NCBI RefSeq assembly: GCF_900109925.1
Contig: NZ_FOBW01000002.1
Span: 434,001-498,000 of the forward strand
Reading direction: 5' to 3'
Length of the DNA: 64,000 nt
Origin: Mesobacillus persicus
GTDB taxonomy: Bacteria; Bacillota; Bacilli; Bacillales; Cytobacillaceae
Part shown: positions 61,720 through 63,067 of the stretch, one piece after another
How positions within the stretch are numbered: the stretch's first letter is position 1
Layout of the letters: each line of letters begins with the position of its first letter
Notes under the pieces: generated by a model
The model's database searches: none
Seen by the model: only the letters and a program-made list of their open reading frames with translations
Told to the model about the DNA's origin: nothing
Made by a program: the position numbers and the translations under genes

Positions 61720-61862
61720 GTATTTTTTCCTATAATAGTTCATTTTGGCCGAATGTCCTCATCTCAGAATGATTATTCAAGATGCGGCTCGATGAGTACA
61801 ACTCGCAGGTTACTCAAGTAGCCTCGCTTGTTGCTCTACCACTGAGCTACTGCGGAATAATA
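61720..61862 (-). repeat. tRNA-associated insert 1, with copied 5' part of tRNA-Asn
   Basis: A 143-bp unit between tRNA-Ile(GAT) and tRNA-Asn. In transcription order it opens with a 31-bp copy (61832-61862) of the tRNA-Asn 5' end and its leader, down to GAGCA. A foreign core of about 80 bp then follows with stem strands TGTACTCATC and GATGAGGACA, then AT-rich spacer and the complete tRNA-Asn. The fragment has no anticodon arm and cannot be a tRNA. Confidence 0.88.
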
Positions 61863-61877
61863 ATTAAAAAAACAAAA

Positions 61878-61951
61878 TGGGCCTAAATGGACTCGAACCA
61901 TCGACCTCACGCTTATCAGGCGTGCGCTCTAACCAGCTGAGCTATAGGCCC
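61878..61951 (-). tRNA. tRNA-Ile (GAT)
   Basis: Acceptor GGGCCTA / TAGGCCC, anticodon GAT, A73; CCA not encoded. Confidence 0.96.
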
Positions 61952-61958
61952 CTATTAA

Positions 61959-62032
61959 TGGAGCGGGTGAAGGGAATCGAACCCTCATCATCAGCTTGGA
62001 AGGCTGAGGTTTTACCACTAAACTACACCCGC
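61959..62032 (-). tRNA. tRNA-Gly (TCC)
   Basis: Acceptor GCGGGTG / CACCCGC, anticodon TCC, CCA encoded. Confidence 0.96.
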
Positions 62033-62045
62033 TTACTAAAATATA

Positions 62046-62122
62046 TGGGGCGACTGATGGGAATCGAACCCACGAATGTCGGAACCACAATCCGATGCGT
62101 TAACCACTTCGCCACAACCGCC
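62046..62122 (-). tRNA. tRNA-His (GTG)
   Basis: Anticodon GTG; the extra 5' G (G-1) faces C73, the histidine identity pair. CCA encoded. Confidence 0.96.
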
Positions 62123-62157
62123 ATATCCTTACTTCTTAGCACAAAGGGGCTAAAAAA

Positions 62158-62233
62158 TGGTGGCTCAGGACGGAATCGAACCGCCGACACATGGATTTTC
62201 AGTCCATTGCTCTACCGACTGAGCTACTGAGCC
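62158..62233 (-). tRNA. tRNA-Phe (GAA)
   Basis: Acceptor GGCTCAG / CTGAGCC, anticodon GAA, CCA encoded. Preceded by an insert with its 5' copy. Confidence 0.96.
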
Positions 62234-62234
62234 T

Positions 62235-62368
62235 AAATTAAAAATTACTTCGCTTAATAGTTGATGCTTGTCCATTGCTCGAAAGACCTCCGGTCTTCCT
62301 CGCAAGTTGCCGCAGGAGCTGAATCAAGGAAGGTAGCAACTTGCTCTACCGACTGAGCTACTGAGCCT
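62235..62368 (-). repeat. tRNA-associated insert 2, with copied 5' part of tRNA-Phe
   Basis: A 134-bp unit between tRNA-Asp and tRNA-Phe. It opens with a 28-bp copy (62341-62368) of the tRNA-Phe 5' end to GAGCA(A). Its core differs from the other three: it has GTTGCTACCTTCCTTGAT, a GTTGC / GCAAC pair and a GAAGACCGGAGGTCTTTC hairpin. It lacks the TGTAC...GGACA stem. Confidence 0.82.
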
Positions 62369-62392
62369 TACTATCTTTTACAAAATTTAAAA

Positions 62393-62469
62393 TGGCGGTC
62401 CGGACGGGACTCGAACCCGCGACCTCCTGCGTGACAGGCAGGCATTCTAACCAACTGAACTACCGGACC
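62393..62469 (-). tRNA. tRNA-Asp (GTC)
   Basis: Acceptor GGTCCGG / CCGGACC, anticodon GTC, G73, CCA encoded. Confidence 0.96.
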
Positions 62470-62493
62470 AATAATATTTTACCTTTAAAAAAT

Positions 62494-62570
62494 TGGTTGC
62501 GGGGGCAGGATTTGAACCTGCGACCTTCGGGTTATGAGCCCGACGAGCTACCGGACTGCTCCACCCCGCG
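62494..62570 (-). tRNA. initiator tRNA-fMet (CAT)
   Basis: C1 opposite A72 is unpaired and the anticodon stem ends in three G-C pairs (GGGCTCATAACCC), both initiator marks. CCA encoded. Confidence 0.95.
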
Positions 62571-62583
62571 ACAATATTATTTA

Positions 62584-62723
62584 CATAGTTTTGTTTATGC
62601 TCTATGTTAGCATTAACTGTCCCGATTTCAGGATGCCTATTCAAGATGCGGCTCAATCGGTACAACTCGCAGATTATTCATAGGAGAAACGCTTGTTGCT
62701 CCACCCCGCGACAATATTATTTA
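62584..62723 (-). repeat. tRNA-associated insert 3, with copied 5' part of tRNA-fMet
   Basis: A 140-bp unit between tRNA-Ser(TGA) and tRNA-fMet. It opens with a 27-bp copy (62697-62723): 13 bp of leader plus only 14 bases of the tRNA, again ending at GAGCA. The core matches insert 1, with stem TGTACCGATT / AATCGGGACA. Confidence 0.88.
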
Positions 62724-62732
62724 TGATAAAAA

Positions 62733-62825
62733 TGGAGGAGGAAAGGGGATTCGAACCCCTGCGCGGTTTGACCCGCCTGTCGGTTTTCAAGACCGATCCC
62801 TTCAGCCGGACTTGGGTATTCCTCC
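62733..62825 (-). tRNA. tRNA-Ser (TGA)
   Basis: Long variable arm, acceptor GGAGGAA / TTCCTCC, anticodon TGA, CCA encoded. Base 73 is T, where serine tRNAs normally have G. Confidence 0.95.
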
Positions 62826-62836
62826 GTGAAAGTATA

Positions 62837-62913
62837 TGGTGGACCTTGTAGGACTCGAACCTACGACCGGACGGTTATGAGCCGTCTGCTCTAACCAGCT
62901 GAGCTAAAGGTCC
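62837..62913 (-). tRNA. tRNA-Ile (CAT, lysidine type)
   Basis: Anticodon CAT with an elongator body (GGACCTT / AAGGTCC) that matches the Bacillus AUA-reading tRNA-Ile2, modified by TilS to read AUA. Position between Met and Ser matches trnB of B. subtilis. Confidence 0.85.
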
Positions 62914-62917
62914 AAGA

Positions 62918-63067
62918 GTTTAGAATTAACAAACAGATATATTATTGAAATATTATCTGTCCCCATCTCAGAAAGCAAATTCAAGTAGCAGCTCGATGGG
63001 TACAACTCGTAGCATTATCAAGGAAGCTTTGCTCGTTGCTCTAACCAGCTGAGCTAAAGGTCCAAGA
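62918..63067 (-). repeat. tRNA-associated insert 4, with copied 5' part of tRNA-Ile(CAT)
   Basis: A 150-bp unit between tRNA-Met and tRNA-Ile(CAT). It opens with a 31-bp copy (63037-63067) of the tRNA 5' end to GAGCA, followed by a core like inserts 1 and 3 with stem TGTACCCATC / GATGGGGACA. Confidence 0.88.

What the first reader, a model, noticed from the sequence alone, without database searches (positions are those of the whole stretch)
61720..63067. Four inserts in the tRNA array, each opening with a copy of the 5' part of the next tRNA
Seen directly: tRNA-Asn, tRNA-Phe, tRNA-fMet and tRNA-Ile(CAT) are each preceded by a 134-150 bp unit that begins with a 27-31 bp exact copy of that tRNA's own leader and 5' end, then switches to foreign sequence and ends at the complete tRNA. 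The same arrangement at four different tRNAs is not explained by ordinary tandem duplication, because the foreign cores are related to each other and not to the tRNAs. It looks as if one small element entered four tRNA genes, each time rebuilding the target. I know of integrative elements that rebuild tRNA 3' ends, but not of elements this small that use 5' ends. The other 15 tRNA genes in the array have ordinary spacers.
Basis: partly seen in the sequence, partly recalled or inferred. Interest (0 to 1): 0.88.

Follow-up and report, generated by a model that had tools for sequence, protein, structure and literature searches.

The report
Structured inserts rebuilding tRNA 5' ends
In many Bacillus-like bacteria, a small folded RNA segment sits inside a copy of the first part of a tRNA gene, directly in front of the complete copy of that same tRNA; the family looks old, has no match in the RNA library searched here, and may control how certain tRNAs are made.

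Summary
A fifth unit (Lys) straddles the window end. The type A core occurs in 123 of 299 sampled genomes of the order and in none outside it in a class and a phylum sample. The copy matches the next annotated tRNA in 144 of 161 core hits and ends at GAGCA(A) in 166 of 183 units. The core sits inside the copy, after tRNA position 26 (14 in fMet), and has covarying helices. Rfam has no match. Empty sites exist in the window's genus; in another genus filled and empty versions of two sites show that the old leader goes with the copy and core plus tail forms the leader of the complete tRNA. The window's units are not one recent invasion: cores follow tRNA type across genomes in 80 of 109 cases. 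Best reading: a pre-tRNA leader element under selection that spreads by recombination. Its action on tRNA maturation is inferred, not shown.

The parts
61832..61862 (-). copy of leader (6 nt) and nt 1-25 of tRNA-Asn
   Evidence: 31-nt exact repeat of 61689-61719
61748..61837 (-). type A core of the Asn unit
   Evidence: model R1, 86.3 bits (C16:495748-495837)
61714..61747 (-). tail of the Asn unit and leader of the complete tRNA-Asn; after the core comes TTCGGC = tRNA-Asn anticodon-stem 5' strand
61639..61713 (-). complete tRNA-Asn(GTT)
   Evidence: ARAGORN, Rfam tRNA
62341..62368 (-). copy of nt 1-27 of tRNA-Phe (plus 1 nt of leader)
   Evidence: 28-nt exact repeat
62270..62346 (-). type B core of the Phe unit with GAGCA at both ends, the match reaching into ATGGAC = tRNA-Phe 27-32
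   Evidence: model R2, 92.1 bits (C16:496270-496346; this sequence helped to build R2)
62158..62233 (-). complete tRNA-Phe(GAA)
62697..62723 (-). copy of leader (13 nt) and nt 1-14 of tRNA-fMet
   Evidence: 27-nt exact repeat
62612..62702 (-). type A core of the fMet unit
   Evidence: model R1, 107.4 bits (this sequence helped to build R1)
62494..62570 (-). complete tRNA-fMet(CAT)
   Evidence: initiator identity judged by sequence
63037..63067 (-). copy of leader (4 nt) and nt 1-27 of tRNA-Ile2(CAT)
   Evidence: 31-nt exact repeat
62952..63042 (-). type A core of the Ile2 unit
   Evidence: model R1, 100.2 bits (this sequence helped to build R1)
62837..62913 (-). complete tRNA-Ile2(CAT), called Met by ARAGORN
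63989..64000 (-). first 12 window bases of a fifth unit, type B, of tRNA-Lys (63862-63937); the rest lies past the window end
   Evidence: model R2 at C16:497989-498066; sequence
61425..61471 (-). terminator-like stem at the end of the tRNA array
   Evidence: 20-pair stem with T-rich tail

Best explanation
A family of structured pre-tRNA leader elements, seen so far only in the window's order (Bacillales by its named members). Shown: a core domain of about 75-90 nt (types A and B, plus diverged variants) lies inside a copy of the 5' part of a tRNA, nearly always directly after GAGCA; a short tail follows, then the complete tRNA. Helices of the core covary, so selection acts on the RNA (or on the paired DNA). 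Shown in one genus: filled and empty versions of the same site, where the leader of the empty site stands before the copy and core plus tail before the complete tRNA. Inferred: units pass between genes of one tRNA type by gene conversion through the tRNA sequence, jump rarely to other tRNAs by short-homology recombination, and are lost cleanly by recombination between the two 5' ends. Inferred function: a cis-acting element of the precursor. The 5'-half copy can take the place of the true 5' half in pairing with the tRNA's 3' half, and the core sets how often it does, so that maturation of fMet, Phe, Lys, Asn, Thr and Ile2 tRNAs can be slowed or gated.
For: Distribution and cognate rule. Covariation: type A main helix 99.2% paired, 6 of 9 pairs with changes on both sides; whole structure of 12 pairs 84 doubly changed cells against 24.5 in shuffles; type B 97.2% paired, 21 against 5.6. 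tRNA-type lines across genomes: 80 of 109 cores. The six nt after the core repeat the genome's own anticodon-stem 5' strand: in 39 type B Phe units 30 are identical, and position 28 agrees in 39 of 39 (35 A, 4 T; the four T come from two genomes of the window's genus, G000 and G003). In an earlier test over 35 Phe units of all types, 22 of 27 clear picks agree with the own tRNA and 5 do not. The island is too short for gene conversion (inference), so it speaks for selection on likeness to the tRNA 5' half. Filled and empty sites.
Against: No expression or processing data. Folding of unit plus tRNA puts the tRNA 3' acceptor strand on the copy in 26 of 28 units, but shuffled core and tail do the same or more (mean -5.5 against -4.5 kcal/mol, 34 units): any 5' copy competes in the model, and the core adds nothing. 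Acceptor mismatches of copies do not favour pairing with the tRNA 3' strand (7 of 33 keep the pair). In fMet only 14-17 nt are copied, and in Lys and Thr the nt after the core follow the tRNA for at most three nt in all but one unit. Some Phe units (G186, G210, G062) lack the island. Type B shuffles give as many pair types as observed (9 against 10.1). Many genomes and gene copies lack the unit.
Confidence: 0.38

Rival explanations
1. A selfish small mobile element that enters tRNA genes after GAGCA and rebuilds the 5' end; the tRNA is only a safe harbour.
For: The junction follows a sequence (GAGCA, or AGCN in the rare types), not a position in the fold; GAGCA stands at both ends of the seven own-genome type B cores; rare types Gly(tcc), Gly(gcc), Asp and Arg with exact 5' copies; tandem copies, up to four behind one tRNA and five model matches in a row in G927.
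Against: Of 163 distinct core hits checked, one has no tRNA gene behind it, a decayed relic behind an operon; no terminal repeats; no phage and one plasmid match for the fMet unit; cores follow tRNA type across genomes in 80 of 109 cases; Val (49 genes), Pro(tgg) (42) and Ser(gga) (20) carry GAGCA near the 5' end but no unit.
Confidence: 0.24
2. Precursor of a stable small RNA: the unit is cut out of the polycistronic transcript and acts in trans (for example on tRNA enzymes or messages).
For: Conserved folded core, tRNA-like 5' part, many copies per genome; one free-standing relic with a terminator-like end (L099, by eye).
Against: No RNA data; the strict tie to the next tRNA is not needed for action in trans.
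Confidence: 0.17
3. A by-product of recombination in repetitive tRNA arrays (partial duplication, gene conversion, slippage) without function.
For: Slippage is evident in tandem units; presence and absence vary within genera; homology between tRNA genes can explain spread within a type and the likeness of copy and tRNA.
Against: Covarying helices over many genera; core length 88-89 nt in seven own-genome copies; six-nt island following the tRNA.
Confidence: 0.14
4. Assembly artefact.
For: Repeats in draft contigs.
Against: Present in single-contig genomes (G033, G186, G275, G300, G317).
Confidence: 0.01

Closest known systems
Integrative elements that use tRNA genes as attachment sites (passages of PMC9897764 read)
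   Same: Insertion within a tRNA gene with a complete tRNA on one side and a tRNA fragment on the other.
   Different: Here about 110-130 bp between the two 5' parts, without genes; the 5' part is copied (use of the 3' part by the known elements is recalled); the fragment lies directly upstream and stays tied to the tRNA.
tyrT rtT repeats of E. coli (recalled, no call)
   Same: Tandem repeats that carry part of the neighbouring tRNA within a tRNA transcript.
   Different: There the 3' end of one tRNA, downstream; here the 5' part of several tRNAs, upstream, with a core that has no counterpart in the copied tRNA.
T-box leaders (recalled; PMC2494555 seen as a listing and start of abstract only)
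   Same: Structured RNA of Gram-positive bacteria tied to specific tRNAs.
   Different: T-boxes lie before amino-acid genes and bind tRNA in trans (recalled); no Rfam T-box match here.
Bacillaceae-1 RNA, RF01690 (listed in PMC2864571, passages read)
   Same: A candidate RNA of Bacillaceae.
   Different: RF01690 does not appear among the matches, at gathering score or at E up to 10 for the stretch 61700-63100.

Membership tests
tRNA-targeting integrative elements | integrase or recombinase gene in the element | tested here: not met
   units are 134-150 bp with no room for such a gene
tRNA-targeting integrative elements | insertion in a tRNA gene with restoration of the tRNA | tested here: inconclusive
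   filled and empty versions of the same site fit it; direction of the change was not established
Known RNA families of Rfam 15 | covariance model match | tested here: not met
   only tRNA and 5S matches at gathering score; at E up to 10 the non-tRNA matches are scattered, all below gathering score
Miniature transposable elements (MITE, IS200/IS605 derivatives) | found at dispersed sites with a target of fixed length | tested here: not met
   tRNA gene behind 162 of 163 distinct core hits checked; copied tRNA stretch varies from 11 to 31 nt
Miniature transposable elements (MITE, IS200/IS605 derivatives) | short direct repeat of the target at both ends | tested here: inconclusive
   GAGCA at both ends of the seven own-genome type B cores (the 16 were chosen by a pattern that asks for it); only GGACA-like at the end of type A
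Self-splicing introns | conserved catalytic core of group I or II | tested here: not met
   no Rfam intron match
Ordinary tandem duplication of tRNA genes | whole repeat unit homologous to the tRNA region | tested here: not met
   only the 5' part and a few nt after the core match the tRNA

The most novel reading that the evidence does not exclude
Bacillales carry an RNA device that sits in the pre-tRNA itself: a decoy 5' half of the cognate tRNA with a structured domain set in at position 26, which competes with the true 5' half for the tRNA's 3' half and so gates maturation of selected tRNAs, the initiator above all. It would be a tRNA-level regulator that copies its own target and moves from tRNA to tRNA by rebuilding the gene it enters.
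Probability: 0.22. Interest if true: 0.92.

Novelty: categorically new. Interest (0 to 1): 0.8.

Why it matters
If the units act on tRNA maturation, many genera of one bacterial order would control the supply of initiator and other tRNAs by a mechanism at the precursor that Rfam does not hold. If they are selfish, they are the smallest elements known to me that rebuild the gene they enter. Either way they are a structured RNA family without a match in Rfam 15, with well over a hundred members seen here and filled and empty sites in close relatives, so the question of how tRNA arrays acquire RNA elements becomes testable.

Tried and rejected
Antisense idea: single folds suggested that the first half of the core is the reverse complement of the copied tRNA part. 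Duplex energies against own and other tRNAs give no specificity: median rank of the own tRNA 5 to 22 of 26-27 for types with five or more units. Against shuffled own sequence the own tRNA does bind somewhat better in Asn, Ile2, Phe and fMet (mean z -1.8 to -0.95) but not in Lys (-0.06). Rejected as a rule.

Helix between the copied GGAG and CUUC of the core: not supported.

Energy test of decoy pairing: 26 of 28 units prefer the copy, but shuffled cores do so as well, so it is a property of any 5' copy and of the energy model. The two further parameter sets gave identical observed values and were probably not loaded; they are not counted. In one search one base was dropped between unit and tRNA where ARAGORN set the 5' end one base early.

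Leader identity as a control for decay: identity is 0.95-1.0 at tRNA positions 1-14 against 0.83 at -1 and about 0.5 at -13, but the two leaders are of different origin in the sites, and the copies were chosen by likeness, so this contrast is not used as evidence. The first test of the nt after the core picks the best-fitting end and is biased; searches are not. In one search five picks disagree with the own tRNA; four of them are GAGGAC and look like the end of the core helix itself, the fifth is G289. Noncognate units hold a Phe variant by chance in 14 of 132 and an Asn variant in 1 of 132.

Shuffle z-scores of eight single stretches run from -3.5 to +0.3; several of these began inside the copy.

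Direction of change: I first read the sites as births. Gly(tcc) units also stand in a second array of G260, G283 and G709, so the empty arrays may be losses. Only the rarity of the Gly(tcc) and Asp types elsewhere (1 of 49 and 1 of 76 records, both from that genus) speaks for an origin there.

Literature: nine searches in open-licence PMC, judged from the listings, gave no description of these units. Most subscription journals are not held.

Full report
What is there. The window ends in a tRNA array of 19 genes on the minus strand. Upstream of Asn, Phe, fMet and Ile2(CAT) lie units of 143, 134, 140 and 150 bp that begin with exact copies of 31, 28, 27 and 31 nt of the tRNA's own leader and 5' end. 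A fifth unit, of Lys, begins in the last 12 bases of the window. The rest of each unit is a core and an AT-rich tail. Asn, fMet and Ile2 share core type A; Phe and Lys share type B. Rfam 15 finds only tRNAs and 5S rRNA here and in four other loci at gathering score; at E up to 10 the other matches are scattered and all below their gathering scores.

How general it is. In the own genome more arrays carry units, some in tandem. A DNA query with the fMet unit matches in 33 of 61 genomes, the own one included. A covariance model of type A (R1) matches in 123 of 299 genomes and 62 of 117 genera of the order; in 6 of 200 genomes of the class sample, all six of the own order; and in 1 of 199 of the phylum sample, the own genome. 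These searches used strict filters that lose weak matches. Type B (R2) is found in 86 of 193 genomes of the own family and 19 of 397 of the order sample. The fMet unit has no match in phages and one in plasmids.

The rule. 141 sources (140 loci, most of them fetched around unit hits, and the window) gave 1231 distinct tRNA-plus-upstream records, so the following shares are not those of genomes at large. Copies were found before Met-CAT (fMet, Ile2 and one elongator) in 77 of 161, Phe 31 of 65, Lys 25 of 51, Asn 12 of 62, Thr(tgt) 8 of 49, and once each before Gly(tcc), Gly(gcc), Asp and Arg(acg); none before the other 23 types listed. GAGCA near the 5' end is common to the five frequent types, but Val (49), Pro(tgg) (42) and Ser(gga) (20) have it too and no unit. 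Of 183 units, 166 end the copy at GAGCA or GAGCAA, and 155 have no mismatch in the matched part. Starting from core hits instead of copies, 144 of 161 have at least 10 of the first 13 nt of the next annotated tRNA before them (170 of 193 hits given, 163 distinct, two without an annotated tRNA, of which one has a masked fMet gene). The 17 others are, by eye, masked stretches, copies of an fMet or Phe gene that is not the next annotated one, diverged copies or relics. In fMet GAGC is the 5' strand of the D stem, in the other common types the 3' strand: the junction is set by sequence.

The core lies inside the tRNA copy. After the core the tRNA sequence often resumes for a few nt: TTCGGC in Asn, AAGGAC or ATGGAC in Phe, GTC in fMet (which picks the best-fitting end; five or more nt in 22 of 35 Phe and 11 of 14 Asn units). 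In 39 type B Phe units, found without regard to this stretch, the six nt are identical to the own tRNA in 30, and position 28 agrees in 39 of 39 (35 A, 4 T; three of the T from the window's genome, one from G003 of the same genus). In 35 Phe units of all types a blind pick agrees with the own tRNA in 22 of 27 clear cases. Lys and Thr follow the tRNA for at most three nt in all but one unit. A small island between an unrelated core and an unrelated tail can hardly be kept by gene conversion; it argues for selection on likeness to the tRNA. The clean case, one change in the window's genus, may be a single event.

Structure. Over 95 type A and related cores the three strongest mutual-information pairs, and five of the ten strongest, lie in one helix; others involve column 1, which separates fMet from other tRNAs. 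On 69 sequences this helix is paired in 99.2% of cells with changes on both sides in 6 of 9 pairs; the whole named structure has 84 doubly changed cells against 24.5 in shuffles, and sliding destroys it. The structure was drawn from these sequences, which favours it in the controls. For type B (16 sequences) two helices are paired in 97.2% of cells, 21 doubly changed cells against 5.6; the first helix includes the GCA of the copied GAGCA. Other helices are not supported (and the inner helix with 67.6%).

Age and movement. Cores resemble a core of the same tRNA in another genome more than any core of another tRNA in the own genome in 80 of 109 cases, with types set automatically. The window's Asn core is 84% like Asn of G018 and 79% like the own fMet; the Ile2 core 85% like Ile2 of G033 and 77% like the own fMet. 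So the window's units look like old lines. Presence varies: the same array in G001, of the window's genus, has the fMet unit but short spacers before Asn (5 nt), Phe (14), Ile2 (11) and Lys (8); G004 has Phe, fMet and Ile2 units but not Asn. In the genus of G260 a Gly(tcc) unit stands between His and Gly in G260 and G707 but not in seven arrays of six other genomes, and an Asp unit after fMet in G260, G707 and G708 but not in six arrays of five others. There the spacer of the empty site is found in front of the copy, the likeness of the two 5' ends starts within one to three nt of tRNA nt 1, and core plus tail is the leader of the complete tRNA. Whether the empty arrays never had the unit or lost it is open. 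By eye the Asp tail resembles the fMet tail of that genus, with fMet GGTGGAGCA and Asp GGTGTAGCG at the junction, so the Asp unit probably came from an fMet unit. Gly(tcc) units in a second array of G260, G283 and G709 suggest passage between genes of one type.

Function. Folding cannot decide whether the copy competes with the true 5' half: the energy model prefers the copy in 26 of 28 units, but also with shuffled cores. Acceptor mismatches in copies do not favour pairing (7 of 33). What remains for a function is the conserved structure, the persistence of the same tRNA types, and the island after the core. I commit to a cis-acting leader element with decoy pairing as the most likely mechanism, at 0.38, with a selfish element, a small RNA and a by-product as rivals.

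Literature. Passages of PMC9897764, PMC2864571 and PMC2267715 were seen; none of the passages shown describes such units. Nine searches of open-licence PMC, judged from listings, found no paper that does.

Noticed in passing
L005 558-721; upstream of tRNA-Gln in L081 (3013), L083 (2851), L055 (569): tRNA-Gln has upstream spacers of 100 nt or more in 9 of 35 cases, without a detected tRNA copy but, by eye, often with a repeated folded motif (GTCGAnGATTTT ... AAAATCATnGTGCGAAG); perhaps a second element family, or one whose copy has decayed.
   Followed up: no
60988-61256: A 52-bp tandem repeat of 5.2 copies beside the tRNA array.
   Followed up: no
63441-63504 and 63799-63861; L080 and L135 upstream of Asp: Short hairpin repeats of the form TTTTCGC..GCGAAAA in tRNA spacers, repeated in some genomes (by eye).
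   Followed up: no
L099 3280-3700: Behind the operon of G062 two decayed units stand without a tRNA, each followed by a terminator-like stem; cores there are fused in tandem (by eye).
   Followed up: partly
G927:C5:181585-182191; L081 1860-2375: Five type B matches at exactly 132 bp (surroundings not fetched) and four type A matches at 141 bp.
   Followed up: no
L293, L294, L297, L299-L304 upstream of tRNA-Asp: A promoter-like TTGAC(A/G)..TAAGAT/TAAAAT stands in the spacer before tRNA-Asp inside the array (by eye).
   Followed up: no
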